From the NCBI GenBank assembly GCA_017428565.1, contig JAFRQP010000078.1:1-47912 (forward strand): a DNA stretch of 47,912 nt, given 5' to 3'. Each line of letters begins with the position of its first letter. Within the stretch, counting starts at the first letter, position 1. The notes under the pieces were generated by a model. The model searched no databases and was not told the origin of the DNA. It was given only the letters and a program-made list of their open reading frames with translations. Both the position numbers and the translations under genes were made by a program. Shown here piece after piece: positions 17,831 through 37,785 of the stretch. Source of the DNA: Oscillospiraceae bacterium. Lineage in GTDB: Bacteria; Bacillota; Clostridia; Oscillospirales; Oscillospiraceae.

Positions 17831-17872
17831 CCGAGTGACTGGATTTGAACCAGCGGCCTCTTGAACCCCATT
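17824..17872. repeat. attL, 49-bp direct repeat
   Basis: Identical to 40963-41011. It starts ATTTGGTCCGAGTGACTGG and ends CTTGAACCCCATT. It covers the CCA end, acceptor 3' strand, T-arm, variable loop and anticodon 3' half of tRNA-Pro, stopping in the anticodon loop, a usual crossover region for tyrosine integrases. Confidence 0.92.
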
Positions 17873-20078: not shown

Positions 20079-20288
20079 CTAGCCATGCACGGCCAGGTTG
20101 CTCCGGCCGCGTACGATCTCTACAAACGCCTCGTCGACCTCAGCCGGCGCAGGGATAGATGGATTGCCTATGGAGTAATCGTACACTTTTTCTGCGCCCA
20201 AAACAACCGCCTGGCGCAACCCGTATTCAAAAAGCTCCCGGATGCAGGAGCGCTTTTTTCCAAGCGCCGCCATTTTTTCATTTACCAT
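20079..20288 (-). pseudogene. Truncated PLP-dependent aminotransferase (N-terminal fragment)
   Basis: About 69 residues match the start of class I/II aminotransferases of the type MVNEKM-x-ALG-x-[KR]-RS-x-IRELFEYG; DYSIGNPSIPAP is also present. After NLAVHG the frame meets a stop (TAG), and the PLP-binding lysine domain is gone. It lies 43 bases after the RidA-like gene, with GGTGAG before ATG 20288, so it was once the second gene of that operon. A deletion has joined its 5' end to the region before the C69 gene. Confidence 0.7.
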
Positions 20289-20331: not shown

Positions 20332-20787
20332 TCAGATTTCAATGATTGCTTCAATCTCAACCGGGGCGTCCATCGGAAGCTGATTGACCCCTACTGCAGT
20401 GCGAGAATGACGACCGGCCTCGCCAAAAACATCATACAGGAGCTGAGAGGCGGCATTCACAACAATGTGTTGCTGGTTGAAGCCGGTTTTGCTGTTGACG
20501 AAGGCCTGTACCTTCACAACATTTTTGACCCGGTCGAGGTCGCCGAGATAAGCCCGCAGTGCGGAAAGCATATTGACGATGCATAGCCGCGCGGCCTCCT
20601 GCGCTTCTTCCAGCGAGACCTCTGCTCCTACATGGCCGGGAAAGCGCATAGCGCCATCGAACATCGGCACCTGACCGGCAACGAACAGAGCGTTGCCAAG
20701 CTGGCGGACGGGAAGATACAGCGCTTTTGGAGGGGAAGCCTCCGGCAGGCGGATACCAAGTTCCTCAATTCTTTTTTCAATCATCAT
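20332..20787 (-). CDS. RidA-family protein (island copy)
   Basis: A 151-residue member of the longer RidA/YjgF branch, starting MMIEKRIEELGIRLPEA. It has LPVRQLGNALFVAGQVPMF and QEAARLCIVNMLSALRAYLG, and ends in VNQLPMDAPVEIEAI. The usual catalytic arginine region reads RHSRTAVGVNQLP. GGAG lies 9 bases before the first ATG. It probably detoxifies imines made by the island's deaminase or aminotransferase, or acts on a related deaminated intermediate. It is divergent from the YitT gene across an operator/promoter region with repeated TTGTCAAT. Confidence 0.87.
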   Translation of the reverse strand: MMIEKRIEELGIRLPEASPPKALYLPVRQLGNALFVAGQVPMFDGAMRFPGHVGAEVSLEEAQEAARLCIVNMLSALRAYLGDLDRVKNVVKVQAFVNSKTGFNQQHIVVNAASQLLYDVFGEAGRHSRTAVGVNQLPMDAPVEIEAIIEI

Positions 20788-20818
20788 AATAGTTGGCTCC
20801 TTTGTTTGAGATGAATGC

Positions 20819-20847
20819 AGTATAGTTCAGTGAAAACAATTTGTCAA
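20819..20847 (-). promoter_or_regulatory. Promoter of the RidA-dipeptidase arm
   Basis: On the minus strand TTGACA (20842-20847) and TATACT (20819-20824) are 17 bases apart. The -35 element lies inside the inverted repeat at 20841-20860. Confidence 0.75.
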
Positions 20848-20869
20848 TAGCAATTGACAAATTGTCAAT
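20841..20869. promoter_or_regulatory. Operator: overlapping TTGTCAAT / ATTGACAA palindromes
   Basis: TTGTCAAT (20841-20848), ATTGACAA (20853-20860) and TTGTCAAT (20862-20869) form two overlapping palindromes with 4- and 1-base centres. The rightward -35 candidate TTGACA (20854-20859) of the YitT operon, with TACGGT 17 bases on, is also covered. The same motif lies at 29461-29481. Confidence 0.7.
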
Positions 20870-20909
20870 ATTGTGATACGGTATCCTCAACTTTGCTGGA
20901 GGTAGCGAA

Positions 20910-21812
20910 ATGCAAAACGGAAGCATCCTAAAAAAGAATTTAAACGCAGCGGCTTCTCTTCTGTTGGGAAACGCTCTCATTGCAATCAGTGTTCTTCTGT
21001 TTATTCGCCCAACGGGGATTATTCTGGGAGGCTCAACCGGGATCGGTCTGTCGCTTTCGCACTATTTCGGCCTGAATCCCGTCTGGGGGATTGCTGTGGC
21101 AAACGGACTTTTCCTGCTATTGGGGACCCTGGCGAAAGGAAAAACGCTGTTTATTGGCTCAGTTGCCAGTTCTATCCTGTATCCCCTGATCCTGGCGCTG
21201 GCAGAGCGGTTGCCGGTGAGCTGGCCGCTTGTTCAGGATCTTTTTCTTGCCGCAGTGATGGGCGCAGCCCTGATGGGATGCGGTGTGGGTCTGATTGTGC
21301 GAAGCGGCGGAGCATCCGGCGGTACGGATAATCTTGCCCTTGCCATTGGTCATTGGACACATCTTCCGGTTGCTCCGCTGCTGATTCTGTGTGATGTGCT
21401 GGTGCTGCTCCCGCAGGCCTTCTTTTCCAGCTTTGAACAGATCCTGTATGGGATTGTTTTTTCCGTAATGACGTCCTTTACCCTCAACCGCGTGATGATT
21501 TTGGGACAATCACAGCTTCAACTGTTTGTCATCTCAGAGAACAATCAGCGGATTCGTCAGAAGCTGCTCCATGAACTGAATATGGGGCTGACGATGCTTC
21601 AGGTTGAAACCGGAATACGCGGGACCAGGCAGGAGGCGATTCTCGCTGTCATTCATCCTCGCGCACTCTATCAGGTAACGGAAATGATTCATGCAGAGGA
21701 CCCGCGGGCATTCATTTCCATTGTGCAGGTCAAGGAAGTGCGAGGCCAGGGCTTCACGTTCGCGCGGGAACAATACCGGCCGGCGGAGCTGCAAAGCACA
21801 CAGGCAGGCTGA
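20910..21812 (+). CDS. YitT family membrane protein
   Basis: A 300-residue protein with about five membrane helices in residues 10-175, including LLGNALIAISVLLFI, GIAVANGLFLLLGTLA and LFLAAVMGAALMGCGVGLIV, followed by a cytoplasmic DUF2179 domain (from about residue 210: QLFVISENNQRIRQKLLHEL and EAILAVIHPRALYQVTEMI). The family motif R-SGGASGGTD is present. Transport activity is suspected for the family but the substrate is unknown. GGAGG lies 7 bases before ATG 20910. It is the first of five tightly packed genes (20910-28046), so it could export or import a compound handled by the peptidases. Confidence 0.88.
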   Translation: MQNGSILKKNLNAAASLLLGNALIAISVLLFIRPTGIILGGSTGIGLSLSHYFGLNPVWGIAVANGLFLLLGTLAKGKTLFIGSVASSILYPLILALAERLPVSWPLVQDLFLAAVMGAALMGCGVGLIVRSGGASGGTDNLALAIGHWTHLPVAPLLILCDVLVLLPQAFFSSFEQILYGIVFSVMTSFTLNRVMILGQSQLQLFVISENNQRIRQKLLHELNMGLTMLQVETGIRGTRQEAILAVIHPRALYQVTEMIHAEDPRAFISIVQVKEVRGQGFTFAREQYRPAELQSTQAG

Positions 21813-21874
21813 CACGCACAATGAACTGCAATCGGGTTTGCGTTTTTTAAATAGAGAAAGGAACGGGACAAACG

Positions 21875-23068
21875 ATGGGTATTATTGATGAAACGGTTAA
21901 GCGGCAGGATATCGGGAATATGAAAGACCTCATCACGCCTGATGTGCTGAAGCAGCATGGGATTGTCAGTTTCGCCGCTGCGGAGATGGACTTTAAGACC
22001 GCCCCATCCGTTATGGAATCCATTAGCGCCATAGTGCAGCGCGGGATCTACGGGTTTACCATTCCCACCCGGGAATACTACGACGCCGTGATCTGGTGGC
22101 ATCGGGAGATGCGTGACTGGGCGATTCAAAAAGAGTGGATTGTACCCACGCTTGGAACCATCTATTCCGTGGCGGAAGCGATTCGAATGACAAGCCACGA
22201 AGGGGAGAGCATCATTGTTCAGACGCCGGTATATTATCGCTACGAGCAGGCTGCCCGACGCCAGAACCGGAAGACGGTTCATAACCGGCTGAAAATTGTG
22301 AACGGGCGCTACGAGATGGATTTTGCCGATCTGGAAGAGAAGATGGCTGATCCGAATAACAAACTGCTGATCCTCTGTAATGCCCATAATCCAATCGGGC
22401 GTGTCTGGACAAGGCAGGAACTTCAGGAAGTCGCAAGAATCTCCCGAAAGTACGAAAAGCTTGTCCTCAGCGACGAAATCTTTGGCGAGATGGTTTTCAC
22501 AGGACAGAGCGCGACGCCGTACGCCTCGATTCCCGAGGGACAGGACTATGCGATCACAGTCACTTCGCTGGGGAAAGCCTTTAATTTTACCGGGGTGAAT
22601 CATGCGCATGCCATCATTCCTAATGAACGTCTTCGTGCGCGCTTTGAGATGCAAAAATACGCCGATCACTACGGAAGCGTCGGCCCGTTTGAGTATGCCG
22701 CCGTATTGGGCGCCTATTCTGAAGCCGGCAGGCAGTGGTTTGAAGCGGTGCGGGATTACATCGGAGGAAACGCCGAATATACCGCGCAGTTCCTGCGATC
22801 CAGACTTCCCCAGACGCATCTTTTCGCAACCGAGGGCACCAGCGTCTGCTGGGTGGACTGGAGTTTTCTCGGCCTGCAGGGGCAGGCATTGCACGACTTC
22901 TTTCTCCATGAGGCGCTGTTTGCGGTGGAAACCGGGGAAGTTTACGGGGAGGGCTGCGGAAGCATGACCCGCATAAACCTGTCAAGTCCGAGGAAACAGG
23001 TTCAGGACGCTCTGGAGCGGGTGTATGCCGCCATTGAGAAAAAGGGATTTGCGCATGAAGCTGTTTGA
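21875..23068 (+). CDS. MalY/PatB family PLP aminotransferase (C-S lyase type)
   Basis: A 397-residue fold-type I PLP enzyme. Family landmarks are FAAAEMDFKTAP near the N-terminus, YGFTIPT, CNAHNPIGRVW, the SDEIFGEMVF aspartate motif and the PLP lysine in TSLGKAFNFTG. MalY/PatB proteins often cleave cystathionine or other cysteine conjugates to pyruvate, ammonia and a thiol, while some are true aminotransferases. The motif set does not decide between them. AAAGGA lies before ATG 21875. Its 3' end overlaps the M19 dipeptidase gene by 14 bases, so they are coupled. An enamine product would suit the island RidA. Confidence 0.88.
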   Translation: MGIIDETVKRQDIGNMKDLITPDVLKQHGIVSFAAAEMDFKTAPSVMESISAIVQRGIYGFTIPTREYYDAVIWWHREMRDWAIQKEWIVPTLGTIYSVAEAIRMTSHEGESIIVQTPVYYRYEQAARRQNRKTVHNRLKIVNGRYEMDFADLEEKMADPNNKLLILCNAHNPIGRVWTRQELQEVARISRKYEKLVLSDEIFGEMVFTGQSATPYASIPEGQDYAITVTSLGKAFNFTGVNHAHAIIPNERLRARFEMQKYADHYGSVGPFEYAAVLGAYSEAGRQWFEAVRDYIGGNAEYTAQFLRSRLPQTHLFATEGTSVCWVDWSFLGLQGQALHDFFLHEALFAVETGEVYGEGCGSMTRINLSSPRKQVQDALERVYAAIEKKGFAHEAV

Positions 23069-24026
23069 CCTGCACTGCGACACGCTATTGCGCTGCTATC
23101 TGGAAAACTGCGGCCTCTGCCGAAATGACGGTCATCTGGATCTGGAAAAAATGGAACGCGGCGGGGCCCTTGCACAGTGCTTTGCGATCTTCCTCCCGTT
23201 TGAAGGCCTGCTCCGGGATGGCAGGCGCCTGAGGCCGTACGAGCTTTTTCAGGACATCCACCGGCTGTATGAACGGGAGATGGAGCAAAATGCGGGGCGC
23301 ATTGCCCCGACCCGAACGCTGCAGGAGCTGAAGGCACATCAGGCTGCCGGGGTGATCTCTTCCGTTCTGACGGTTGAAGACGGCGCGCTGCTGGAGGGCC
23401 GTCTGGAGCGTGTGAAAGAACTTTATGAAAAGGGCGTGCGCATGCTGACGCTGACGTGGAACTATGACAATTGCATTGGCAGTCCGAACAGCGCAAAGCC
23501 CGTGGAACATGCAAAAGGTCTCAAGCTCTTTGGGTTTCAGGTTCTGGAAGAAATGGAACGGCTTGGAATGGTTGTGGATGTGTCTCATCTTTCAGAGGGC
23601 GGCTTCTGGGATGTGGCGCGGGTCAGCAGAAAACCCTTTGTCGCTTCCCATTCCTGCGCACGCGCCCTGTGCGACCATCCGCGGAATCTGACAGATGCCC
23701 AGCTGCGTGCTCTGGCTGATCACGGCGGCGTAGTCGGCGTCAATTACAATGCGGAGTTTCTGCGCTGCAACAGCAAAAGAACCTGCGTAGACGATATCCT
23801 CCGGCACGTTGAATACATGCTGCAGGTCGCCGGGTCAGACGCTGTAGCATTGGGTTCGGACTTCGATGGAATCACCTGCGAACTTGAACTCGCTGATTAT
23901 GGAGAAACCGGAAAGCTGGTTCAGGCGTTAGCGCACCGGTACCCGGATTTTCTGGTTGAAAAGATCTGTTGCCAAAATGCGCTGCGCGTGTTGAAGGACT
24001 GCCTGGGAAGGAGGAACGACCAATGA
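23055..24026 (+). CDS. M19 family dipeptidase (renal dipeptidase type)
   Basis: A 323-residue zinc dipeptidase. The first metal site is HCD at residues 7-9 (FDLHCDTL). Later motifs are VDVSHLSEGGFWDV, ASHSCARALCDHPRNL and LGSDFDG, as in membrane dipeptidase. M19 enzymes cleave a broad set of dipeptides and tolerate a D-residue at the C-terminal side. No signal peptide is present, so it acts in the cytoplasm. The start at 23055 (MKLFDLHCDTL) has AAAGGG upstream and overlaps the aminotransferase end. Its stop overlaps the next ATG (ATGA, 24023-24026). Confidence 0.92.
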   Translation: MKLFDLHCDTLLRCYLENCGLCRNDGHLDLEKMERGGALAQCFAIFLPFEGLLRDGRRLRPYELFQDIHRLYEREMEQNAGRIAPTRTLQELKAHQAAGVISSVLTVEDGALLEGRLERVKELYEKGVRMLTLTWNYDNCIGSPNSAKPVEHAKGLKLFGFQVLEEMERLGMVVDVSHLSEGGFWDVARVSRKPFVASHSCARALCDHPRNLTDAQLRALADHGGVVGVNYNAEFLRCNSKRTCVDDILRHVEYMLQVAGSDAVALGSDFDGITCELELADYGETGKLVQALAHRYPDFLVEKICCQNALRVLKDCLGRRNDQ

Positions 24027-26098
24027 AAAAGAAATGTTTTACGCCGCAGGATATGGGAAAGCTGCGCTATCTCTCAGCGGTAACGGTATCCCGGGATGGA
24101 CGCCGGGCTGCCTGCGTCTGCAGCAGAGGAGATGAGGAGAGCGGCGCGTTCTTCTCCCATCTTCTTTTGGCGGATCTGGAAAAGGGAACGATAGAGCCCC
24201 TCTTCCCGGGGGAAAATCGAATTCGTTTTGAACAGCCACAGTTCGACTTGGACGGCGCCCTGTACTATCTTTCGGATCGGAGCGGCCTCTCACAACTGTA
24301 CCGGCTGCAGCCGGAAACCGGGGCCGAGGTTCGGCTGAGCACCGCGCGGCACGGGGTAACAAGGTATTCTCTTTCCGCGGATGGGCGAACGGCGGCAATT
24401 GAAATGAATCTGTGGCCGGAGGAAATCAAGGCAGGGTCGGCCTTTTCTCTGATGACGGACGCGGAACAAAGGGCCTGGGAAGAGGATCTGGAGTACAGGC
24501 CGTATGAAATTACGGATCTGACCTATAAAATGGATGAGTGGCATGGCATGCGTCATGGCGAGATGCCTCACATCGCGCGGATTGACCTGCGCACAGGTTC
24601 CCAGACCCTGCTCACCCCAGACGGTCCGGAGGCCTGCTGGCCCTGTCTGTCACCCGACGGAGAACGGGTCGCGTTTTACGGATATCCCCATACCGGGGCG
24701 TTCGGACGGCAGCCGGAACTGTTTCTCTGCGAAAAGGATGGAAGCGGCCTCCGGCAGTTGACAGACAACCAGGGCGTGTATGTGGACGGGTTTCCGCTCT
24801 TTTCTCCCTCCGGAGAAGAACTGCTCTTTGTCTCCATGCCGGAGACTGTGGATGGAAGTGTGATTCTGCTGCCGGCTGCCATCCATCTGGAGAATGGGGA
24901 GATCCGTCGCCTGATGGAGGAGACGGAGGATGCCGTTTGCCACGGAATCAACCCGCCGGCCGGAAACCGCACGGAATACGGAACCGCACGACGACCGTTC
25001 TGCCTGAGCGGGAATGGAGAGACGTTTTATTTCGTCTCGTCCTTCCAGGGCCGTGGGCAGATTTATCTCAAGTCGTTGTCCCGGCCTGCCGAGCCCGCTG
25101 CGGTGGTCATACCGGGCGAGACCGTGATTCGGGAGTTCGGGCTGTCGGAGAACGGAACGCTGGTCTACCTGATGTCCTCACTGAAGCATCCGCCGGAGCT
25201 TTTTGTCAGGCGGCCGGGGGACAGTGCGTCGCTGAAATTGACAGAAGTGAACGTCTGGCTGAACGAATATGAGCTGCCCGACACGGAGGAATTCTGGATT
25301 CCGACCCGTGACGGGAAGGCCAGGCTGCAGGTCTGGCTGATGCATCCCGCCGGGCAGAAGCCGGGAGAAAAATATCCTTCGGTCCTGTATGTGCGCGGCG
25401 GCCCGCCGGCGACTTACAACGCCGACTACTGGCACGAGTTTCACGCTCTGGCCTGCGCCGGTGTTGCGGTCATCTACACAAATCCGCGCGGCAGCCTCGG
25501 TTACGGAAAAGCCTTCTGCGCCGGCTCCATTGCCTGGAAACAGGAGGCCATGGACGATCTGCTCAGCGCGGTGGATGCGTGTGTCGAACGGGGAATGATT
25601 GATCCACGCCGTCTGGGCATTACCGGCGGGAGCTACGGCGGCTACATGACCAACAAACTCATCGGCCGGACAAAGGTCTTTGCCGCCGCTGTCAGTCAGC
25701 GATGCCTGGTGAACCCCGCGACTTCCTACGGAACGGGGGATATGGGCTTTGTTTCGTCCAGGCCGTCCGATCCGGGCTTCAGCATGCTGGAGTATCTGGA
25801 GGACCGTGCCCGGGGAAATCCGCTGACCTATATCGACAACATCAAAATTCCCCTGCTCCTTCTGCATGGGTATCAGGATTATCGCTGCAGCTTCGAGCAG
25901 GCGGAGCAGATGTTCATCGCCATGCGGGATCGAAATCCGGAGGTTCCGGTTCGCCTGGTCATGTTCCCGGGCGAAAACCACGGCATCGACCGGACCGGAA
26001 AACTTTACCACCAGGTTCAGCACCTGCAAGAGCTTTGCACGTGGTTCCAAAAACATCTCGGGGGAGAGGAGCGCAAGAATGGAAAAGAGACTGCCTGA
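24023..26098 (+). CDS. S9 family (prolyl oligopeptidase/acylaminoacyl peptidase type) serine peptidase 1
   Basis: A 691-residue protein without a signal peptide. An N-terminal beta-propeller (about 10-430, with repeats such as SADGRTAAIE, SPDGERVAFYG and FSPSGEELLFVS) precedes an alpha/beta hydrolase domain. The triad is Ser537 in TGGSYGGYM, an aspartate in LLLHGYQDYRC and a histidine in PGENHGID. YVRGGPPATY is the oxyanion region. Such enzymes trim short peptides, often acylated or proline-containing ones. Its 3' end overlaps the second S9 gene by 20 bases. The two S9 proteins are only distantly related copies, suggesting different specificities. Confidence 0.92.
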   Translation: MKKKCFTPQDMGKLRYLSAVTVSRDGRRAACVCSRGDEESGAFFSHLLLADLEKGTIEPLFPGENRIRFEQPQFDLDGALYYLSDRSGLSQLYRLQPETGAEVRLSTARHGVTRYSLSADGRTAAIEMNLWPEEIKAGSAFSLMTDAEQRAWEEDLEYRPYEITDLTYKMDEWHGMRHGEMPHIARIDLRTGSQTLLTPDGPEACWPCLSPDGERVAFYGYPHTGAFGRQPELFLCEKDGSGLRQLTDNQGVYVDGFPLFSPSGEELLFVSMPETVDGSVILLPAAIHLENGEIRRLMEETEDAVCHGINPPAGNRTEYGTARRPFCLSGNGETFYFVSSFQGRGQIYLKSLSRPAEPAAVVIPGETVIREFGLSENGTLVYLMSSLKHPPELFVRRPGDSASLKLTEVNVWLNEYELPDTEEFWIPTRDGKARLQVWLMHPAGQKPGEKYPSVLYVRGGPPATYNADYWHEFHALACAGVAVIYTNPRGSLGYGKAFCAGSIAWKQEAMDDLLSAVDACVERGMIDPRRLGITGGSYGGYMTNKLIGRTKVFAAAVSQRCLVNPATSYGTGDMGFVSSRPSDPGFSMLEYLEDRARGNPLTYIDNIKIPLLLLHGYQDYRCSFEQAEQMFIAMRDRNPEVPVRLVMFPGENHGIDRTGKLYHQVQHLQELCTWFQKHLGGEERKNGKETA

Positions 26099-28046
26099 AT
26101 TCGATGATCTGATCCAGTTGGAGCGTTTTCGCGGCGCGGACTACCGCGAGGCGGAAGAATTGGTCGTCTATACCTCGGCCTCCGGAATCCGGCTGCGGCA
26201 TCTGCGATCCGGCAGAGAAGAGCGTATCACCGCTGGAGGACGTAGGGAAGGGAACGCACGGTTCAGCCCGGACGGGAGCCGGATTCTCTTCACCTCCGGC
26301 TTCGCGGATGGGCAGAAGCTGTTCCTTTATGATCGGGAAACGAAATCGATTCGTCCGCTTACCACAATGCAGGGGCCCATCACGGAACCGATCTGGTCTC
26401 CGGACGGCGCTAAAATCCTGTTTGCCTCCCCTTCGGGAGAGCGCGGCGAGCGGCGCGCGCATCGTGACAGCGCCGTTGTGATTGAGGATTTCGGCTACAA
26501 ATTTGACGGCATGGGTTTCTATACGCCGACGAGTTTTCTCCAGCTCTTCGTAGTCGCGGCGGACGGGGGCGAGACCATACGCGTTACCGACGGCAAGTGC
26601 AATTTCATGCACCACAACTGGGCCTCCGACAGCCGGCATATCCTCTGCTGCAGCAATTTGTTCCGCGCCAAAGAAGAGTCGCTGGGCATGGACCTTCTCT
26701 ACATGGAAGCGAAGGAGCAGGGAGAGATTCGTCAACTTACCCAGGGGGTTTGGCTAGTTTCCTATCCGAATCCGCTGCGGCCCATCCCAACCCCCGACGG
26801 CAAGGCGGTTCTGGCGGGCATTCTGGATTTCCCGGCCGGGCAGAAAATGACCGACACCACCACCTATCCGGAGGTGTATCTGTATAAAATTCCGCTGGAC
26901 GGGTCGGAGATGGAGCGAATCTTTTTCCCCGACGATAGCTGCTATCAGTGCGTTCAGTTCCCGTATAACGCTGCCTGCGGATGGGGCTTTGACCGGGTGC
27001 AGCTGTCGGATGATGGGCAGGAGATCTTCTTTCACGGCGGCTGGCAGGGTCGTACGGTGCTCTATGGGCTCCCGACGGAGGGCGGCGCCGTCAGAACGGT
27101 ACTGAATGAACCCTTTGCGGTGCACGGCATCGGCACGGTTCAGAACGGAAAAGCGCTGCTGGCCATCTCCAGCGAAACCCGACCGGAGCGCTATGTGATT
27201 CTGGATACCCGCAGCGGGAATCTTCAGGAGACCGGAATTCAGTCCGCAGAGGAACTGGTTCGGAATGCCGCCTTCAGCCAGCCAGAAAACTTCTTTGTAA
27301 ACACCCTGGACGGCGATGGCAGGATTCATGGCTGGGTCATGCCGCCGCAGCGGAGGGAAGGGGGAAAGCGATATCCGGCGATCCTTTACATTCACGGCGG
27401 ACCGCATCCTTTCTACACCTATGGCTTTACGCTGGAGCATCAGTGCTTCGCGGCGGCCGGCTTTGCTGTGCTTTACTGCAACCCCCGAGGAAGCAGCGGC
27501 TATGGCAAAGCGCATCAGGACATCCGGAAGGCCTTTGACGGGCGCGCCTATGAGGACTGCCTTCAGTTTGTGGACGAGGCATGCCGAAGATTTCCATGGA
27601 TTGATCCCGACCGGATTGGGGTGACGGGAGGCAGTTATGGCGGCTATATGACCAACTATATGGCGACGCACTGCCGACGCTTCCGGGCCTATGTGTCACA
27701 GCGCAGCGTGGTGAACCAGTTGATTTCCTACGCCAGCAGCGACATGCAGGGCAGCAGCAAAAAGTACGGGAATTTTGAGGAGTTCATGATCGCCCAGCTG
27801 AAGGACTCGCCCGTCAGCTATGCCGAGCGCATTGACCGGCCTTTTCTGATCCTGCACGGAACCGATGATCTGCGAACCCCAGTGGAAGGGGCGCATCAGC
27901 TGTTTGTCGCCATCAAGGACACCCATCCCGACCTTCCGGTGCGGATGGTGCTCTATCCGCACACGGGGCATGATCAGCCGTCGAACCCGAAGCAGCAGAA
28001 GCATTATTATCATGAAATGCTGAACTGGTTTCGCACCTATCTGTGA
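26079..28046 (+). CDS. S9 family serine peptidase 2
   Basis: A 655-residue relative of the gene before it, also cytoplasmic. The propeller runs to about residue 390 (RFSPDGSRILFTSG, WSPDGAKILFASP). The hydrolase domain has YIHGGPHPFYTYGF, the nucleophile Ser519 in TGGSYGGYMTNY, an aspartate in LILHGTDDLRTPVEG and a histidine in PHTGHDQPS. AGGAG lies 7 bases before ATG 26079 inside the upstream gene. It is the last gene of the rightward operon and is closed by a strong hairpin shared with the convergent amidohydrolase gene. Confidence 0.92.
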   Translation: MEKRLPEFDDLIQLERFRGADYREAEELVVYTSASGIRLRHLRSGREERITAGGRREGNARFSPDGSRILFTSGFADGQKLFLYDRETKSIRPLTTMQGPITEPIWSPDGAKILFASPSGERGERRAHRDSAVVIEDFGYKFDGMGFYTPTSFLQLFVVAADGGETIRVTDGKCNFMHHNWASDSRHILCCSNLFRAKEESLGMDLLYMEAKEQGEIRQLTQGVWLVSYPNPLRPIPTPDGKAVLAGILDFPAGQKMTDTTTYPEVYLYKIPLDGSEMERIFFPDDSCYQCVQFPYNAACGWGFDRVQLSDDGQEIFFHGGWQGRTVLYGLPTEGGAVRTVLNEPFAVHGIGTVQNGKALLAISSETRPERYVILDTRSGNLQETGIQSAEELVRNAAFSQPENFFVNTLDGDGRIHGWVMPPQRREGGKRYPAILYIHGGPHPFYTYGFTLEHQCFAAAGFAVLYCNPRGSSGYGKAHQDIRKAFDGRAYEDCLQFVDEACRRFPWIDPDRIGVTGGSYGGYMTNYMATHCRRFRAYVSQRSVVNQLISYASSDMQGSSKKYGNFEEFMIAQLKDSPVSYAERIDRPFLILHGTDDLRTPVEGAHQLFVAIKDTHPDLPVRMVLYPHTGHDQPSNPKQQKHYYHEMLNWFRTYL

Positions 28047-28096
28047 AGGGTGCCCCGCCACATCGCTCAGAAACCTCAATCGGATCTGAAATAATC

Positions 28097-28146
28097 AACC
28101 CGGCCTGTTGAATCCTCAACGCAGGAATTCGACAGGTCGGGTTTTA
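28097..28146. terminator. Bidirectional terminator between convergent genes
   Basis: AACCCGGCCTGTTGAATCCT pairs, with two mismatches and a bulge, with AGGAATTCGACAGGTCGGGT. T-rich sequence follows on the plus strand (GGGTTTTA); the minus strand has only a weak T run. Confidence 0.75.
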
Positions 28147-28176
28147 CTCCGGCATTTTTGAAAAGACCGGACGGAA

Positions 28177-29406
28177 TCAGTTCAGGAGGTTCTTTTTTAT
28201 CTGGCCGTCCAGCATGACCAGCTTCACGTGATCGGCATGGGTCAGGCAACCGATATCCTCCAGCGGGTTGCCGTCAACAATAACCAGATCCGCGCATTTG
28301 CCGACGTCCAGCGAGCCGGTTTCGTCCTCGTTCATCATCAGATGCGCGGCGTGAATGGTGCCGGCCTGGATGGCCTCCCAATTGCTGAGCCCTGCTTTCG
28401 TCATCGCCTCGAACTCTCTGCCCAGCTCCAGATAAGAGGAGTTGGGGCTGTTGGTAAAGTCGGTCCCCAGAGCGATTCGAATTCCGGCGTCCCGCGCCAT
28501 ACGGACGCTGCGCACATGGGCTTCGGCGCTGCTTCTCACCTTTCTGGCCATCCATTCCGGAAGGTTGGGAATTCTGGCAACGCCCAGACTGACGCAGAGC
28601 GTCGTCACCAGGGTGGCGTCGCTGGCCTTCATTCGTTCCACTTCCCGCTCAGTGAGGTACATGCCGTGTTCAATGCAGGTGATGCCCGCAAGCAGAGCCT
28701 GATACGTTCCGTCGCTTCCCACGCAATGGGCGCAGGCATAGCTGTGGTGCCGTTTCGCTTCGTCCGAGATGGCCTTTAACTCTTCCGGAGAAAACTGCAC
28801 GTCATCCAGCCGATCCGTTGGCGAGGAAACGCCGCCGGTTGCACAGAGCTTGATGAACTTGGCGCCCGCGCGAAACTGCTCTCTCACTGCCATCACGCAA
28901 TCATCCACTCCGTCTGTCAGGCGGCAGAGGTGACTGCTGCGGTTGAACTCTTCCTTGCTCATCATCGGATCCAGATCCACATGGCCTGAAGTGATGCCAA
29001 GCACTTTCCCGCCCGGCAGAATTTTCGGCCCCCGCAGAATTCCGCGCTCGACCGCGCGAGAGAGATACAGCCCGTTTTCAGACATGTCGCGCACACCGGT
29101 AAAGCCCGCATCCAGAATCAGACCGCACTGGTATGCTCCGCCGAGCAGCTGATCACCGTAAAACCGGCCATCGGCAAAGCTGCCCGCGTTCTCCTCCCCG
29201 CTCAGATGCGCATGGCAGTCAATGAAACCCGGCATAACAGATCCGCCGGGAAAAGAATAGACAGGAACATTTTCTGCTTCCTCTGAAAACCCGTCCGCAG
29301 GACCCGCATACACAATCCGCCCGTCCTCAACCGCTATCAGACCGTCTTCTATGGTAAGCTTCGCGCGAACATCGAACACTCGACCTTTTATAATGTATTT
29401 CAGCAT
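28177..29406 (-). CDS. Metal-dependent amidohydrolase (COG1228, Xaa-dipeptidase/prolidase-like)
   Basis: A 409-residue member of the amidohydrolase superfamily. Metal ligands are HAH (His65, His67) in PGFIDCHAHLSG, the carboxylated lysine in AKFIKLCATGGV, a histidine in HHSYACAHCVG, ITCIEHG and the aspartate in ALGTDF. In this subgroup, characterised enzymes are cytoplasmic or secreted zinc carboxypeptidases or dipeptidases acting on Xaa-Pro/Arg/Lys or N-acyl amino acids; the exact substrate here is unknown. GGAAGGGG precedes ATG 29406. It is divergent from the M61-like gene, with the shared operator between the two promoters. Confidence 0.88.
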   Translation of the reverse strand: MLKYIIKGRVFDVRAKLTIEDGLIAVEDGRIVYAGPADGFSEEAENVPVYSFPGGSVMPGFIDCHAHLSGEENAGSFADGRFYGDQLLGGAYQCGLILDAGFTGVRDMSENGLYLSRAVERGILRGPKILPGGKVLGITSGHVDLDPMMSKEEFNRSSHLCRLTDGVDDCVMAVREQFRAGAKFIKLCATGGVSSPTDRLDDVQFSPEELKAISDEAKRHHSYACAHCVGSDGTYQALLAGITCIEHGMYLTEREVERMKASDATLVTTLCVSLGVARIPNLPEWMARKVRSSAEAHVRSVRMARDAGIRIALGTDFTNSPNSSYLELGREFEAMTKAGLSNWEAIQAGTIHAAHLMMNEDETGSLDVGKCADLVIVDGNPLEDIGCLTHADHVKLVMLDGQIKKNLLN

Positions 29407-29438
29407 GGCTTCCCCTTCCCTTCTGAAGTGATAAATGG

Positions 29439-29467
29439 ATACTAACAGAATATCAACAGATTGTCAA
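29439..29467 (-). promoter_or_regulatory. Promoter of the amidohydrolase gene
   Basis: On the minus strand TTGACA (29462-29467) and TAGTAT (29439-29444) are 17 bases apart. The -35 lies in the inverted repeat. Confidence 0.75.
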
Positions 29468-29481
29468 TTATATATTGACAA
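29461..29481. promoter_or_regulatory. Operator: TTGTCAAT-TATAT-ATTGACAA
   Basis: A perfect 8-bp inverted repeat with a 5-base centre. It supplies the -35 hexamers of both divergent promoters, so a bound protein would control both sides at once. The half-sites are identical to those at 20841-20869. Confidence 0.75.
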
Positions 29482-29503
29482 AAAGTTGCCTCCATGTTAT
29501 AAT
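29475..29503 (+). promoter_or_regulatory. Consensus promoter of the M61-transporter operon
   Basis: TTGACA (29475-29480) and TATAAT (29498-29503) with a 17-base spacer; both match consensus fully. The start of transcription should be near 29510, which argues against the ATG at 29515 and for the one at 29551. Confidence 0.88.
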
Positions 29504-29550
29504 CTGCATATCATATGGAATCAGAACCTGATACGATAAAGGAGGAACCT

Positions 29551-30954
29551 ATGGAAACCCTTCCACACCTGTCGATTACCCTGAGGCCCAGCATGGATGC
29601 ATCCTACCATTTTAAATTCTGTGATGTCAAGATGGAGCTTGAGACGCCTGAACTGGCTGCCGGGATGACGCTTGCCTCCCTGTGGAAGATGGTTGCCGGC
29701 GTCCCTCGCTGCCCGCTTGACCCGGAGGGGGTGTCAGCCTGTGACGCGGCCGGAGCACTTCCTCTCCGGGAGGCAACAGAGTCTTCGATGGGCTTTGAAA
29801 AGACCGCCTGGCAGACGGCTCGCGCAACGCAAGGCAACGTAGTGCTGTCCTATCGTTTCTTTCCCCGGGATGTCAGCGGCATCGACCGCTGCTATCCGAT
29901 TTTTGACACCATCTGCGAGGAAAACGGCGCACTGATTTGTGGAGTAACCAGCCTGGTCACGGTACCGGAAAAAGAGTATCGGTTTTCCCTGCATTGGGAC
30001 CGCACACTGTTGCCGGAAGGTGCGGATGTGACCGCGATCAAAGGGAACGGAGACTGCGAATTTGTCGGGAAGCCCAATGATTATGCCTTCTCCCTCTACC
30101 TGGTCGGGAAAATCCAGTGCGCTACGGACGACAGCGGGAAATACCGGGTCCTCTGGCTTTCAGAGCATCTTCCGGACGCGGATCGGGTCTATGCCCAGGT
30201 TCCTCCGCTGCTGCGCGAGATGTGCCGCTTCTTCCGGGATGAGGATTTGCATTACAGCATCTTCTTTCGGAAAGAGCCCTATTCCGTATCCAACAGCGGC
30301 ACTGCCTTTGACGGTGGATTTGCTTACGGATTCAGCGATTCCATGCCGCTTCGAATGGACGAGGCGCTCAATACTCTGGCGCACGAGATCGTCCACAACT
30401 GGCCTCAGCTGGAAAACCTTCAGGGCGAGAGCAGCTGGTATATGGAGGGAACTGCCGAATATTACAGCGTGATGGTTCCTCTGCGCAGTGGAATTGTGGA
30501 TGCGGAACAGGCCGCCGAATGGCTCACGCAGAAAAGCGTCAACTATTATAACAACCGCTTCCAGCGTCTCAGCAATGAAGAAGCCTATGCCAAAGCCTGG
30601 GAGAACCATGAGATTCAGCGGGTACCCTACGGCCGGGGACTGTTCTACCTTGCCCATGTGGATGTGTGCCTGAAAAATGCCAGTCATGGGGCACGCTGCT
30701 TGGATGATCTCATTCTGGAACTGGATCTGCGCAGGCGGCGCGGCGAAACGGTTCGGGTTTCCGACTGGCTTCAACTCGTCGAGCGAGAGCTTGGCCAGGA
30801 AGCGGTCGACGAATTCCGGGAGATTATGTCAGGGCGGAAGATGCTTTCACCGGAACCGGAATGGTTTGACGGCATCTTTGCTTGGAAACGCGGGGATTAT
30901 CAGAACATCAAGCAGGGCAGCATTGAGAACGCCCTGATTTGGTATAAAAAATGA
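29551..30954 (+). CDS. M61-like (glycyl aminopeptidase type) zinc peptidase without PDZ domain
   Basis: A 467-residue cytoplasmic gluzincin. The zinc motif is HEIVH (278-282), with the third ligand glutamate about 17 residues on in WYMEGTAEYY. The N-terminal 200 residues are beta-rich, as in the M61 family, and the C-terminus is helical. The typical C-terminal PDZ domain of M61 is missing. M61 enzymes release N-terminal Gly/Ala. The start at 29551 (METLPHLSITLRP) has AAAGGAGG 6 bases upstream. Its stop overlaps an ATG of the next frame (ATGA, 30951-30954), and the transporter follows directly. Confidence 0.78.
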   Translation: METLPHLSITLRPSMDASYHFKFCDVKMELETPELAAGMTLASLWKMVAGVPRCPLDPEGVSACDAAGALPLREATESSMGFEKTAWQTARATQGNVVLSYRFFPRDVSGIDRCYPIFDTICEENGALICGVTSLVTVPEKEYRFSLHWDRTLLPEGADVTAIKGNGDCEFVGKPNDYAFSLYLVGKIQCATDDSGKYRVLWLSEHLPDADRVYAQVPPLLREMCRFFRDEDLHYSIFFRKEPYSVSNSGTAFDGGFAYGFSDSMPLRMDEALNTLAHEIVHNWPQLENLQGESSWYMEGTAEYYSVMVPLRSGIVDAEQAAEWLTQKSVNYYNNRFQRLSNEEAYAKAWENHEIQRVPYGRGLFYLAHVDVCLKNASHGARCLDDLILELDLRRRRGETVRVSDWLQLVERELGQEAVDEFREIMSGRKMLSPEPEWFDGIFAWKRGDYQNIKQGSIENALIWYKK

Positions 30955-30974
30955 AAACAGAAAGGAACAGAATT

Positions 30975-32357
30975 ATGCCAGCCAAAACCAATGACCGCAT
31001 TTTGCCCCTGCGCGTAAAAATCGGATATCCCCTATCCGGAGTCGGCTCCACCCTGCAGATGCTGATCCAGATGTACTTCCTGCTGACCTTCTACGTCAGC
31101 TTCCTTGGAATCAGCGGAACCGCGGCCGGTCTCATCATCATGATCGCCAGAATCTGGGACTTTATCAACGATCCTATCATGGGCATGATCGTGGAGAAGG
31201 TCAAAAAGCCGGAAAAGTGCCTGTTCATCATGCGCTGTGCGCTGGTCCCGATCGCGATTTTTATGGTGCTGGTCTTCTGCGCGCCGAATCTCTCCTACAA
31301 CATGAAGATCGTCTGGGCGCTGGTCACGTTTATCTGCTTTGGGATGTCTCAGACAGCTTACAGCATTTCCAGTTATGCCCTTCAGCCAAGGCTCACTTCC
31401 AACAAGGTCGAGCGCTCCAAGCTGAATGTCTTTTCGCAGGTTTTCTCCGTTATCCTCAACGCCCTGGTTCCCGCTGTCACCATGCCGCTGGTCAGCTGGC
31501 TGGCCGGCTACGGTCAGACGACTGCCTTTGCCAAGGTAGCCGCGATCTACGCCGTGGTTTATATCATTACCGGACTGGTCGGAACCTTTCTGTGCCGCGG
31601 ATATGACAACGACGTGGAGGAAGACGCAGCAGCCCAGAAGGGAAAGTCGCCAAGTTTTGGTGAGATGATGAAGGCCCTGGCCGAGAATAAGGCCGCGCTC
31701 TCCATTCTGCTGATTCAGGTCATCAAAATGCTCTTCTCCTCCATCGCCGGCAGCGTCATGCTCTATTTCTGCACGTACAACCTTGGCAATGCGGACGCCA
31801 TGTCCCTCGCCTCCAGTATCGGCACCTTCGGCGGCCTGCTCCCGATGCTGTTCCTGGTTCCGCTGTATAAGAAGGTCGGCAATTCCGGCACCGGTCTGCT
31901 GGGCTGTATCGTCGCCATCGGAACCTATCTGGTGATGCTGATTTCCGGTGTGCCGAGCGTCACCTTCTATGTGGTCTGCTATGTGATCGGCAGCATCGGC
32001 ACAACGCTGGTTTCCGCCGTCATGACCCAGAACCTGATGGATTCCATCGACTATGGAGAATGGAAAACCGGGCACAAGAATACCGGCGTCATCATGTCTG
32101 CCTTCGGCATCGGAACCAAGATCGGCCTCGCCTTTGGCAGCTCCATTGCCGGATTTGTCCTGGGCGCGCTCCATTTTGACCCGAATGCCGCAACCCAGCC
32201 CGCCAGCGTGCTGAAGGCGTTCTTCCACATCTCCATCACGGGACAGATGTTTGTGTTTGTGGCGATTTTCCTGCTGCTGCTCGTGATCCGCAGAATTGAA
32301 AAGAAGCTCCCGCAGATGCGCCAGGAAGTGCTGGAACGAAAAGCGGCACAGGCGTAA
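30975..32357 (+). CDS. GPH/MFS family cation symporter
   Basis: A 460-residue, 12-helix transporter of the glycoside-pentoside-hexuronide branch of the MFS. Signatures are the WDFINDPIMG motif near residues 55-65 and SIDYGEWKTG near 360. Known members carry sugars or uronides with sodium or protons, but many gut relatives are uncharacterised. Its place between peptidases and a deaminase suggests it brings in the peptide or amino-acid substrate (inference). AAAGGA lies 8 bases before ATG 30975; the ATG at 30951, coupled to the M61 stop, is an alternative that adds 8 residues. Confidence 0.88.
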   Translation: MPAKTNDRILPLRVKIGYPLSGVGSTLQMLIQMYFLLTFYVSFLGISGTAAGLIIMIARIWDFINDPIMGMIVEKVKKPEKCLFIMRCALVPIAIFMVLVFCAPNLSYNMKIVWALVTFICFGMSQTAYSISSYALQPRLTSNKVERSKLNVFSQVFSVILNALVPAVTMPLVSWLAGYGQTTAFAKVAAIYAVVYIITGLVGTFLCRGYDNDVEEDAAAQKGKSPSFGEMMKALAENKAALSILLIQVIKMLFSSIAGSVMLYFCTYNLGNADAMSLASSIGTFGGLLPMLFLVPLYKKVGNSGTGLLGCIVAIGTYLVMLISGVPSVTFYVVCYVIGSIGTTLVSAVMTQNLMDSIDYGEWKTGHKNTGVIMSAFGIGTKIGLAFGSSIAGFVLGALHFDPNAATQPASVLKAFFHISITGQMFVFVAIFLLLLVIRRIEKKLPQMRQEVLERKAAQA

Positions 32358-32383
32358 CGTTACCGGTTTCGGAGAGAAACAGT

Positions 32384-33584
32384 ATGGAATACGGCGTTAC
32401 ATTGGAGATGATCGAGGAGGCCAGGGAAGCGCTGACCGGTTTTTCGGAGGTCACCCCGGTTGTCAGCTCCTCCAGATTGGGGAAAAAACCTTTTCATCAA
32501 ATCCGAGAATCTGCAGAAGACCGGTTCGTTTAAGATTCGCGGCGCCTACAACACAATTCGTCAGCTTTCCCCTGAGGACGCCGCCCGCGGAGTGATTGCC
32601 TGCTCTGCTGGAAATCATGCGCAGGGCGTGGCGCTTTCGGCCGCGCAGCTGGGAATTCGTTCGGTCATTTGCATGCCGGAAGGCGCGCCGATTTTGAAGG
32701 TGGAAGCTACCAGAAGCTATGGAGCAGAGATTGTTCTGGTACCGGGCGTGTATGACGATGCTTCAAGAGAAGCGGAGCGACTTTCGAGGGAAAAAGGATA
32801 TCTCTTTGCGCATCCGTTCAACGACCCGGATGTGATCGCAGGACAGGGCACCATTGGCCTGGAGATTCTGGATCAGGTGAAGGATGTGGAGCAGATCCTT
32901 GTACCGGTAGGAGGCGGCGGCCTAATCAGCGGTATTGCCGTGGCGGTAAAGTCCATTCGTCCGGATGTCCGCGTGATCGGCGTGCAGTCCGCCATGGTAC
33001 CCTCAATGCTTGTCTCCAGAAGAACCGGAAAAGTAACTACCGTCAAAGGGAACGCAACCATTGCGGATGGAATACATGTTTTAACGCCGGGCGACCTGAC
33101 GTTTCATCTGGTACAGGAATACGTGGATGAAATAGTCACCGTCACCGAGGACGAGATTGCCGCAGCGATCGTTGCGCTCCTGGAAGGACCGAAAACTGTG
33201 GCGGAAGGGGCGGGAGCTACCGCGGTGGCAGCGTATCTCTTCCGGCGGGTCGACGTAGGGCGCAAAACCGTGGCCGTGGTCTCGGGTGGAAATGTGGATA
33301 TCACAACCCTGTCGAGAATCATAACCAAGGGCCTGCAGAAAACCGGCAGAATTACTCAGTTCCGGACGAAGCTGACAGATAAAGCCGGAAATCTTGCACA
33401 ACTCCTGGCCTGCGTAGCGCAGAACGGCGCGAATGTTCTGAATATCGAGCATGAACGGGAGGATGCCAAGACCGAAGTCAACTCCTGCGTGGTAACCATG
33501 ACGCTGGAGACCAGGGACAGCGCCCACGTCCTTCAGATTCGTGAGGATCTTGACCGGAGAGGGTATGGGCTGTTATATGACTGA
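32384..33584 (+). pseudogene. Threonine/serine ammonia-lyase with ACT domain, frameshifted
   Basis: The start (MEYGVTLEMIEEAREALTGF) is in one frame and the rest (from KNLFIKSENLQKTGSFKIRG) is one base ahead. The shift falls at GGGGAAAAAACC around 32479-32490, so a single inserted base in a homopolymer would explain it. The remainder has the PLP lysine in TGSFKIRG, the SAGNHAQG loop, the PVGGGG loop and a C-terminal ACT domain (about the last 80 residues). The gene could be dead, or the base could be a sequencing error, or the product could be rescued by slippage. It resembles the chromosomal ilvA and would supply keto acids and ammonia from threonine or serine. The transporter gene is 26 bases upstream. 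Confidence 0.75.
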
Positions 33585-33614
33585 ACAGAAGATGGGACCG
33601 ACCGTATGAATTGC

Positions 33615-33657
33615 ACCCGGGAACTGGGAGGGGATCACAGTTCCCGGGTCGATTTTT
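33615..33657 (+). terminator. Terminator after the deaminase
   Basis: ACCCGGGAACTG (33615-33626) and CAGTTCCCGGGT (33638-33649) form a perfect 12-bp stem, followed by CGATTTTTCC. Confidence 0.88.
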
Positions 33658-33677
33658 CCAGGTCAGGATGAAGCAGG

Positions 33678-33717
33678 TTGACAAATTGTTGCTTTTGCGG
33701 GACCCTTGTGGTATAGT
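33678..33717 (+). promoter_or_regulatory. Regulator promoter with a partial operator
   Basis: TTGACAAATTGT (33678-33689) is shared exactly with the operator at 20854-20865. Just downstream, TTGCTT (33689-33694) and TATAGT (33712-33717), 17 bases apart, form a promoter. This suggests autoregulation. Confidence 0.6.
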
Positions 33718-33745
33718 TTCAGCAGTGGAAGGGAAGGTGCGGAAG

Positions 33746-34381
33746 ATGGCAGAGAAAGAAACAGCATTGGAATTTCTGATTCGAACAGCCGAAGCGATTG
33801 CGTCTACGTTCGGAAGCAACTGTGAAACCCTGATTCAGGATATGCAGCAGCCGGGTCATCCCATTGTGGCAATTTTTCATTCCCATGGGCGACAGCCCGG
33901 TTCCACGGAAGACGTCTTTGGCTCAGATCTCAACCCCCAGATGTTGTATGAATATATTCAGGAAGACTCTGTTAACACCATGGTTGTCACAAAAGCAGGG
34001 CGTACCATCAAGTCGACGACCATCCATTACAAGGGAAGCGATTTCCACTACGCGCTCGGCATCAATTTTGATTACACCGCGCTTCTTCCGGCGATTGCGA
34101 TCGTGCGCGACTTGACCGAGACGGGAGAGGAACTGGACGAACATCTGGAACGACAGCGAAGCCTTCGAATTGATGAGCTGTTCGAAGATTGCGTTGCCAG
34201 CATTGGAAAGCCGATCCCAAGCATGAAAAGGCAGGATAAGCTTTATCTGATCCGGCTTCTGAAGGACCGGAAAGTTTTTGACCTGCAAAAATCCGTTACT
34301 TATGTGGCGGAACGTTTGGGAACCTCACGGTATACAATTTATAAATACATCCACGAGATTGAAGAAAATCACGAATTGTAA
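33746..34381 (+). CDS. YheO/DauR-type transcriptional regulator
   Basis: A 211-residue protein. The N-terminal PAS-like YheO domain (about 10-115: FGSNCETLIQDM, IKSTTIHYKGSDFHYALGIN) is followed by a linker and a C-terminal helix-turn-helix (about 160-210: VTYVAERLGTSRYTIYKYIHE). This is the architecture of the DauR D-arginine utilisation repressor and relatives. It sits directly downstream of the cargo and upstream of nothing else regulated, so it most likely reads the shared TTGTCAAT operators. The ligand is unknown; a D-amino acid or a peptide product is a reasonable guess. ATG 33746 has GGAAGG upstream; the longer frame starts before the promoter. Confidence 0.85.
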   Translation: MAEKETALEFLIRTAEAIASTFGSNCETLIQDMQQPGHPIVAIFHSHGRQPGSTEDVFGSDLNPQMLYEYIQEDSVNTMVVTKAGRTIKSTTIHYKGSDFHYALGINFDYTALLPAIAIVRDLTETGEELDEHLERQRSLRIDELFEDCVASIGKPIPSMKRQDKLYLIRLLKDRKVFDLQKSVTYVAERLGTSRYTIYKYIHEIEENHEL

Positions 34382-37728: not shown

Positions 37729-37785
37729 CGGGTCGGTCAGTTTTGACCGCCCTTCATTCCAAAAAGAAAAGAGGTGAAAGAAGAA

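What the first reader, a model, noticed from the sequence alone, without database searches (positions are those of the whole stretch)
20332..34381. A candidate regulon for uptake and breakdown of small, perhaps modified or D-residue-containing, peptides
RidA, C69 and M19 dipeptidases, two S9 peptidases, COG1228 amidohydrolase, an M61-like peptidase, a MalY/PatB enzyme, a threonine-type deaminase, YitT and a GPH transporter sit together with one YheO/DauR-type regulator. Six different peptidase/amidase folds in a single controlled set suggest an unusual substrate. M19 tolerates D-residues and DauR relatives sense D-amino acids. GPH transporters are usually linked to sugars, so a glycopeptide is another option. 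I know of no described system with this exact combination.
Basis: inference. Interest (0 to 1): 0.85.

Follow-up and report, generated by a model that had tools for sequence, protein, structure and literature searches.

The report
Mobile island carrying a peptide-digestion regulon
A set of peptide-cutting and amino-acid-breaking enzymes with its own switch sits inside a mobile DNA island and recurs as a unit in distant relatives, so it looks like a transferable kit for feeding on small peptides.

Summary
The gene list is real: RidA, YitT, MalY/PatB-like, M19, two S9, COG1228, M61-like, GPH, threonine-deaminase and YheO-type genes fill 20332-34381. One control is supported: the three exact copies of TTGACAAATTGT in the 2.69-Mb genome precede ridA, yitT and the regulator gene. 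Conservation is supported: S9+S9+M61-like+COG1228+MalY+YheO-type recur together in two other genomes, one outside the class. Both carry Opp-type peptide-transport genes where the window has GPH, which points to peptides.

Not supported: D-residues (M19 is outside the shared set; the Rid protein resembles Rid1) and glycopeptides. C69 lacks the operator.

Most likely: a YheO-type repressor controls uptake and cytosolic hydrolysis of peptides; MalY and the deaminase release enamines that Rid hydrolyses. This scheme is inferred. YheO-RidA pairing is published; I found no description of this combination in the listings I saw.

The parts
17824..17872 (.). left end (attL-like): 49-bp copy of the 3' end of tRNA-Pro
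   Evidence: perfect direct repeat with 40963-41011
18067..18363 (-). short fragment resembling the start of an S15/alpha-beta hydrolase, 98 aa
   Evidence: PF02129 21.1 bits, below its 23-bit cut-off
18518..19981 (-). C69 family dipeptidase; probably outside the regulon
   Evidence: NF033678 588 bits, PF03577; no operator copy nearby
20085..20288 (-). 68-residue open stretch like the start of a PLP aminotransferase (likeness recalled, not searched)
   Evidence: translation
20332..20787 (-). RidA-family protein, closest to the Rid1 subfamily
   Evidence: PF14588; solved relatives 3d01, 9bk9 PA0814, 9bkb ACIAD3089
20836..20847 (-). operator copy TTGACAAATTGT in the ridA promoter; TTGACA-17-TATACT
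20854..20868 (+). perfect dyad TTGACAAATTGTCAA in the yitT promoter; TTGACA-17-TACGGT (weak -10)
20910..21812 (+). YitT-type membrane protein (PF02588 + DUF2179)
21875..23068 (+). MalY/PatB-like PLP lyase
   Evidence: TIGR04350 300.6 bits, below cut-off; cystalysin 1c7n E 2.7e-66 and cysteine-S-conjugate beta-lyases
23055..24026 (+). M19 dipeptidase
   Evidence: PF01244; solved M19 dipeptidases 3ly0, 3fdg
24023..26098 (+). S9 serine peptidase, first copy (S9a)
   Evidence: PF00326; best NCBIfam Dpp5 166.6 bits, far below cut-off 900
26079..28046 (+). S9 serine peptidase, second copy (S9b)
   Evidence: PF00326; Dpp5 159 bits, below cut-off
28177..29406 (-). COG1228-type metal-dependent amidohydrolase, prolidase-like
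   Evidence: NF051886 247 bits, below cut-off 500; top solved hit prolidase 3feq/3n2c E 7.9e-53
29453..29489 (.). divergent promoters with looser operator-like sequence (TTGACAATCTGTTGA minus, TTGACA-17-TAGTAT; TTGACAAAAAGTTGC plus, TTGACA-17-TATAAT)
29551..30954 (+). M61-like metallopeptidase with HEIVH...E
   Evidence: PF05299 24.4 bits; H278, E279, H282, E299 invariant in the five aligned sequences
30951..32357 (+). GPH/MFS_2 cation symporter; cation-site residues kept
   Evidence: TIGR00792
32384..33584 (+). threonine ammonia-lyase, frame-shifted near its start in this assembly (open part 32460-33584)
   Evidence: TIGR01127 475 bits; reading frames
33678..33692 (+). operator copy TTGACAAATTGT(TGC), 68 bases before the regulator's start codon
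33746..34381 (+). YheO-type regulator (PAS_6 + HTH_22)
34778..35599 (-). Cro/C1-type regulator of the element
   Evidence: PF01381
36424..37728 (+). Mob_Pre (MobV-type, name recalled) relaxase
   Evidence: PF01076 123.7 bits; relatives in 24 of 200 family genomes, own genome included
37774..39090 (+). primase/helicase-type replication protein (DUF5906, D5_N)
39755..40909 (+). tyrosine integrase
   Evidence: PF00589; phrog_1 236 bits
40963..41011 (-). right end (attR-like): 3' end of the intact tRNA-Pro (GGG) gene 40966-41041

Best explanation
A 23.1-kb integrative, probably mobilizable, element in tRNA-Pro carries an inducible peptide-catabolism regulon. Shown from sequence: the element's end repeats, integrase, relaxase and primase, the gene set, and a cluster-specific operator-like sequence at the ridA, yitT and regulator promoters. 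Inferred: the YheO-type protein is a repressor that binds these sites and lets go when an amino-acid or peptide signal is present. The symporter (here GPH; Opp-type ABC in relatives) brings in peptides. Cytosolic S9 peptidases, the M61-like peptidase and the COG1228 and M19 dipeptidases cut them to amino acids. MalY/PatB and threonine deaminase then split Cys-, Ser- or Thr-type residues, releasing enamines (2-aminoacrylate, 2-aminocrotonate) that the Rid1-like protein hydrolyses to keto acids for fermentation.
For: Element: 49-bp perfect repeat 17824-17872 / 40963-41011 covering the tRNA-Pro 3' end; the 1-kb bins starting 18001 to 40001 have G+C 0.49-0.60, those from 10001 to 16001 0.62-0.68 and from 43001 0.66-0.72; Int, Mob_Pre, DUF5906/D5. 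The tRNA-Pro beside the rhomboid-type gene was found in 6 of 17 fetched same-genus stretches; in two (L096, L099) phage tail or head genes lie within about 12 kb of it and in one (L102) an integrase lies next to it, i.e. a hot spot. Regulon: TTGACAAATTGT exact 3 times in 2,692,212 bases, all in this cluster; 0 of 2000 shuffles of the 427 joined intergenic bases and 2 of 300 shuffles of the island had a copy. Unit: L077 (G276, another family of the order) has S9a 39%, S9b 42%, M61 38%, YheO 41%, MalY 43%, RidA 64%, COG1228 65%; L154 (G1120, same phylum, not same class) has S9a 41%, S9b 39%, MalY 49%, M61 41%, COG1228 52%, YheO 42%. Both carry an OppC-type permease and SBP_bac_5 gene. In 12 of 23 readable loci of closer relatives of the regulator an adjacent gene belongs to one BLAST cluster; the two members scanned are M20 peptidases, one PepV/Sapep-like. 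Rid: closest to Rid1, whose members deaminate 2-aminoacrylate and rescue a ridA mutant (PMC5619798, passages). Regulator: YheO-type Cj1387c represses the adjacent RidA-type gene (PMC4519771, passages).
Against: No expression or binding data. Six further sites lie within one mismatch of TTGACAAATTGT: one is the other strand of the 20854 dyad, five are on other contigs, and the reversed control pattern gave one. The COG1228 and M61 promoters differ from it at two positions, and TTGACA is itself the -35 box. In relatives the motif is patchy (see Tried and rejected). RidA was not found by tblastn in L154 and, with the window's RidA at E 1e-8, in none of the 35 regulator stretches. M61-like identity rests on a weak hit and HExxH. 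No uninserted chromosomal site was shown. GPH substrate unknown. The genome is 83.7% complete in 105 contigs.
Confidence: 0.63

Rival explanations
1. The regulon targets peptides with a sulphur-linked or other beta-substituted alanine (cysteine conjugates, lanthionine). Peptidases free the residue, MalY cleaves the C-S bond, and the Rid protein removes 2-aminoacrylate.
For: MalY/PatB-like is the one amino-acid-level enzyme seen in all three full clusters; its closest solved relatives are cystalysin and cysteine-S-conjugate beta-lyases; L003 (Dysosmobacter MAG) has YheO-type, a COG1228-type amidohydrolase (26% to the window's), an amino-acid permease, MalY (43%) and a short RidA-like ORF, with no S9/M61 hit.
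Against: TIGR04350 score is below its cut-off; MalY-type enzymes also act on plain cysteine or cystathionine (recalled); threonine deaminase suggests Ser/Thr use as well; the RidA-like ORF of L003 is only 83 aa with matches of 32 and 29 residues.
Confidence: 0.22
2. The regulon degrades D-residue-containing peptides.
For: M19 present; regulator of the PAS_6/HTH_22 family to which DauR belongs (recalled).
Against: No M19 hit in L077 and L154; no racemase or D-amino-acid dehydrogenase among the cluster's family hits; Rid1-type proteins had no significant activity on iminoarginine (PMC5619798, passages); a YheO-type regulator is reported as linked to a RidA-type gene, not to D-amino acids (PMC4519771, passages).
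Confidence: 0.05
3. The regulon degrades glycopeptides or Amadori-type sugar-amino acids, taken in by the GPH symporter.
For: GPH family over its cut-off.
Against: No sugar-processing gene among the cluster's family hits; Opp-type genes stand in the two other clusters; the substrate pocket differs at two positions from all six E. coli GPH proteins compared while the cation site is kept. The last point is weak, as galactoside-binding residues are conserved only among MelB orthologues (PMC8329300, passages).
Confidence: 0.04
4. The amidohydrolase is the main enzyme and opens amide bonds of foreign compounds (as ochratoxin-degrading relatives do); the rest only recycles the amino acid.
For: Solved relatives include ochratoxinase and other amide hydrolases.
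Against: The top solved hit is a prolidase; two S9 and the M61-like peptidases travel with it.
Confidence: 0.04

Closest known systems
YheO-type repressor with adjacent RidA-type gene (Cj1387c/Cj1388, CfiR/CfiP; PMC4519771: section 20 and passages read)
   Same: PAS_6+HTH regulator with a RidA-family gene under its control; the paper reports homologues elsewhere as always linked
   Different: here ridA is about 13 kb from the regulator (one gene away in L077), the shared operator also precedes yitT-malY-M19-S9-S9, and the context is peptide breakdown, not flagella
Rid1 subfamily enamine/imine deaminases (PA0814, ACIAD3089; PMC5619798: passages read)
   Same: among the nearest solved relatives; an arginine aligns at the HxR(T/A)AVGV motif
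   Different: no activity data here; not tied to a peptide cluster in the passages read
Opp/Dpp-coupled intracellular peptide utilisation (recalled general kind)
   Same: peptide uptake plus cytosolic peptidases; the two relative clusters have Opp-type genes
   Different: the window uses a GPH symporter, has a dedicated regulator and PLP lyases, and sits on a mobile element
Prolidase-like COG1228 amidohydrolases (3feq/3n2c; Cc2672 3mtw)
   Same: family and overall sequence
   Different: below the NF051886 cut-off; specificity untested
Integrative and mobilizable elements with tyrosine integrase at tRNA 3' ends (recalled general kind)
   Same: integrase next to tRNA, direct repeats, relaxase, replication protein
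   Different: cargo is a catabolic peptide regulon; movement not shown

Membership tests
integrative and mobilizable element | flanking direct repeats at an integration site | tested here: met
   49-bp perfect repeat, tRNA-Pro 3' end
integrative and mobilizable element | integrase inside the ends | tested here: met
   PF00589, phrog_1
integrative and mobilizable element | relaxase but no own conjugation machinery | tested here: inconclusive
   Mob_Pre found; only the named ORFs were family-scanned, and ORFs under 90 aa were not listed
integrative and mobilizable element | excision or transfer | not testable with these tools
   needs cells
YheO/RidA repressor pair | PAS_6+HTH regulator | tested here: met
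YheO/RidA repressor pair | RidA-family gene in the same control | tested here: inconclusive
   same exact 12-base site at both promoters; binding not tested
YheO/RidA repressor pair | RidA gene adjacent or one gene away | tested here: not met
   about 13 kb apart in the window; one gene (malY) between them in L077
DauR-type D-amino-acid regulon (recalled) | D-amino-acid dehydrogenase or racemase in the set | tested here: not met
   none among the family hits of the cluster
PatB family C-S lyase (TIGR04350) | score over curated cut-off | tested here: not met
   300.6 against 340
Caulobacter-type Xaa-Pro dipeptidase (NF051886) | score over curated cut-off | tested here: not met
   246.9 against 500
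GPH symporter (TIGR00792) | score over curated cut-off | tested here: met
   253.2 against 231.35
peptidase M61 | catalytic-domain profile and HExxH zinc site | tested here: met
   24.4 against 22 bits, HEIVH; the relative in L154 is below the cut-off, 20.9
peptidase M61 | fold | not testable with these tools

The most novel reading that the evidence does not exclude
A transferable, self-regulated unit for digesting thioether- or otherwise beta-substituted-alanine-containing peptides, in which a YheO subfamily with the operator TTGACAAATTGTCAA couples peptide hydrolysis, C-S lyase cleavage and enamine clean-up, with interchangeable transporters, spread between classes of bacteria by integrative elements.
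Probability: 0.17. Interest if true: 0.72.

Novelty: new variant of a known kind. Interest (0 to 1): 0.52.

Why it matters
It links a regulator family whose signal was called unknown in the paper read (YheO-type; PMC4519771, passages) to peptide catabolism, supplies a concrete operator to test, and shows nutrient use moving as cargo on an integrative element. The GPH/Opp swap gives a testable case of a non-sugar GPH substrate.

Tried and rejected
Regulator-anchored search: 36 of 150 family genomes, own included, matched at E 1e-20 or better. I extended 35 regulator stretches and L003. In these 36, tblastn at 1e-8 showed MalY and a 26% amidohydrolase match only in L003, a 26% YitT match in L035, 27-28% deaminase matches in L065, L067 and L068, and no S9, M61 or RidA match (a short RidA-like stretch in L003 appears). 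So the regulator alone does not predict the cluster, and I do not reproduce the general YheO-RidA linkage of PMC4519771 with this query; distant RidA forms could be missed.

Rarity, own genome included, samples overlapping: M61-like in 5 of 295 order genomes at E 1e-15 and 1 of 391 class genomes at E 1e-30; COG1228 relative in 5 of 394 order genomes at E 1e-80, 1 of 10 genomes of the G276 family at E 1e-80 (own genome not in this sample), 2 of 319 phylum genomes at E 1e-90; S9b in 2 of 197 order genomes at E 1e-80. L079 and L080 carry an M61-like gene alone; L078/L116 adds only an 81-residue COG1228 match. L113 and L114 pair COG1228 with RidA and an S10-type carboxypeptidase.

Operator in relatives: L077 has three sites within one mismatch of TTGACAAATTGT, two before S9a and the ABC operon, one inside a permease gene; L154 has four within two mismatches, three upstream of the binding-protein gene and one inside malY; sites with two mismatches are expected by chance about once per 20 kb (own estimate), so L154 is weak. 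Of 30 regulator genes (29 loci) 3 (L003, L039, L054) had TTGACN5GTCAA with at most one mismatch within the 300 bases before or first 30 bases of the matched frame; L077's had none.

Empty site: sought in 17 same-genus stretches. SHMT, the left neighbour in the window, was not found in any of them, so the left chromosomal junction is unconfirmed.

Neighbour survey of the regulator: 28 loci, 5 unreadable, 23 used; the ORF picker was crude and in some loci starred an opposite-strand ORF.

GPH pocket comparison: suggestive only. Metal-dependent bile-salt hydrolase idea: abstract, outline and section 9 of PMC13081902 read; that family has an extra C-terminal domain and lies mostly in Desulfovibrionaceae; set aside. 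Papers: searches; I saw the listed titles and abstract beginnings (lists capped), and none described this gene combination; one search returned none. Open-access library only.

Full report
What is there. The window is contig C69 of a 2.69-Mb, 105-contig, 83.7% complete genome. In order: C69 dipeptidase (-), Rid protein (-), then yitT-malY-M19-S9-S9 (+), COG1228 amidohydrolase (-), M61-like-GPH-threonine deaminase (+) and the YheO-type regulator (+). Several neighbours overlap by a few bases inside the two plus-strand operons. The deaminase is frame-shifted near its start in this assembly; I cannot tell decay from a sequencing error.

A mobile element. The 49 bases at 40963-41011, which cover the 3' end of tRNA-Pro, recur without a mismatch at 17824-17872. 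Between them lie the peptidase cluster, a C1-type regulator, a Mob_Pre relaxase, a DUF5906/D5-type primase-helicase and, next to the tRNA, a tyrosine integrase. G+C in the 1-kb bins starting 18001 to 40001 is 0.49-0.60, in those from 10001 to 16001 0.62-0.68 and from 43001 onward 0.66-0.72; the bins at 17001, 41001 and 42001 are 0.56, 0.61 and 0.58. In same-genus relatives a tRNA-Pro beside the rhomboid-type gene was seen in 6 of 17 stretches fetched; phage head or tail genes lie within about 12 kb of it in two (L096, L099) and an integrase next to it in one (L102). So this looks like an integration hot spot with the cluster as cargo. A relaxase 81% identical is in another genus of the family, and relatives at E 1e-60 or better are in 24 of 200 family genomes, own genome included. 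The left chromosomal junction is not confirmed.

One control. The perfect dyad TTGACAAATTGTCAA at 20854 is the only site within two mismatches in the genome. TTGACAAATTGT occurs exactly three times in the genome: before ridA, before yitT, before the regulator gene. Six more sites lie within one mismatch: one is the other strand of the dyad, five are on other contigs; the reversed control pattern gave one. Shuffles of the same 427 intergenic bases gave no copy in 2000 trials; shuffles of the island gave a copy in 2 of 300. At ridA and yitT the site covers the -35 box, which fits repression; at the regulator gene it lies 68 bases before the start codon and no promoter of this spacing was called there. 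The amidohydrolase and M61 promoters carry looser versions, two positions off, so their membership is likely but weaker. C69 has no site. In relatives the motif is patchy.

A conserved unit. Searching with the M61-like, S9b and COG1228 proteins led to two other clusters. L077 (another family of the order) holds S9a, S9b, M61-like, YheO-type, MalY, RidA (64%), Opp-type ABC genes and COG1228 (65%). L154 (same phylum, outside the class) holds S9b, S9a, MalY, M61-like, COG1228, a GntR/aminotransferase regulator, YheO-type, an OppC-type permease and a binding protein; RidA was not found there. M19, C69, YitT, GPH and the deaminase gave no hit in these two stretches. A smaller version is in a Dysosmobacter MAG, L003: COG1228-type amidohydrolase (26%), YheO-type, amino-acid permease, MalY (43%) and a short RidA-like ORF. 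COG1228 with RidA also occurs in L113 and L114 next to an S10-type carboxypeptidase. The cluster is rare: counts are in Tried and rejected. Rarity, wide spread and the element in the window fit horizontal transfer; no tree was built, and no integrase was recognised in L077 or L154, where I looked only by tblastn with the window's integrase (and query sets).

How it most likely works. Shared by all three full clusters are two S9 peptidases, the M61-like peptidase, COG1228, MalY and the regulator; the transporter varies (GPH, Opp, Opp). The common denominator is therefore peptides. In 12 of 23 readable loci of closer relatives of the regulator (28 tried, 5 unreadable) an adjacent gene belongs to one BLAST cluster; the two members scanned are M20 peptidases, one PepV/Sapep-like. 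MalY and the deaminase should make enamines, and the Rid protein is near Rid1, whose members deaminate 2-aminoacrylate and rescue a ridA mutant but had no significant activity on iminoarginine (PMC5619798, passages). A YheO-type protein is a shown repressor of a neighbouring RidA-type gene (PMC4519771, passages). These steps combined give the repressor-peptidase-lyase-Rid scheme; the scheme itself is inferred.

What is not supported. D-residues: M19 is outside the shared set and no D-amino-acid enzyme is among the cluster's family hits. Glycopeptides: no sugar gene among them, and GPH is the swapped part. The GPH protein keeps D55, N58, D59, G117, T121 and K377 (MelB numbering) and differs from MelB and five other E. 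coli GPH proteins at 120 and 124, but galactoside-binding residues are conserved only among MelB orthologues (PMC8329300, passages), so this is weak.

Standing. Parts are known; the YheO-RidA link is published. The combination, its operator and its place on an integrative element were not described in the listings that my searches returned, which cover only an open-access library and capped lists.

Noticed in passing
window 32384-32480: Threonine-deaminase gene shows a one-frame break near its start; decay or assembly error.
   Followed up: partly
window 18067-18363 and 20085-20288: Two short gene remnants (S15/alpha-beta hydrolase-like, sub-threshold; aminotransferase-like by recall) inside the element, perhaps earlier cargo.
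   Followed up: partly
G000 contig C22 6520-7816 (L153): A second, broken Mob_Pre copy in the same genome (69% and 86% in two frames) with a different integrase nearby.
   Followed up: partly
L077 1729-2823; L003 8931-9905: Octopine-dehydrogenase-type gene beside the L077 peptidase cluster; a ketopantoate-reductase-type gene beside the L003 amidohydrolase.
   Followed up: no
window 17683-17830: More partial tRNA-like pieces, one inverted, and an inverted repeat left of the left repeat; perhaps traces of earlier insertions.
   Followed up: no
L113 214-3655, L114 7973-11035: S10-type carboxypeptidase, RidA and COG1228 amidohydrolase grouped in another family, a possible cousin system; no hit to the window's YheO-type regulator in the stretches read.
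   Followed up: partly
L102 4364-5521: A different integrase at the same tRNA-Pro in a same-genus genome.
   Followed up: partly
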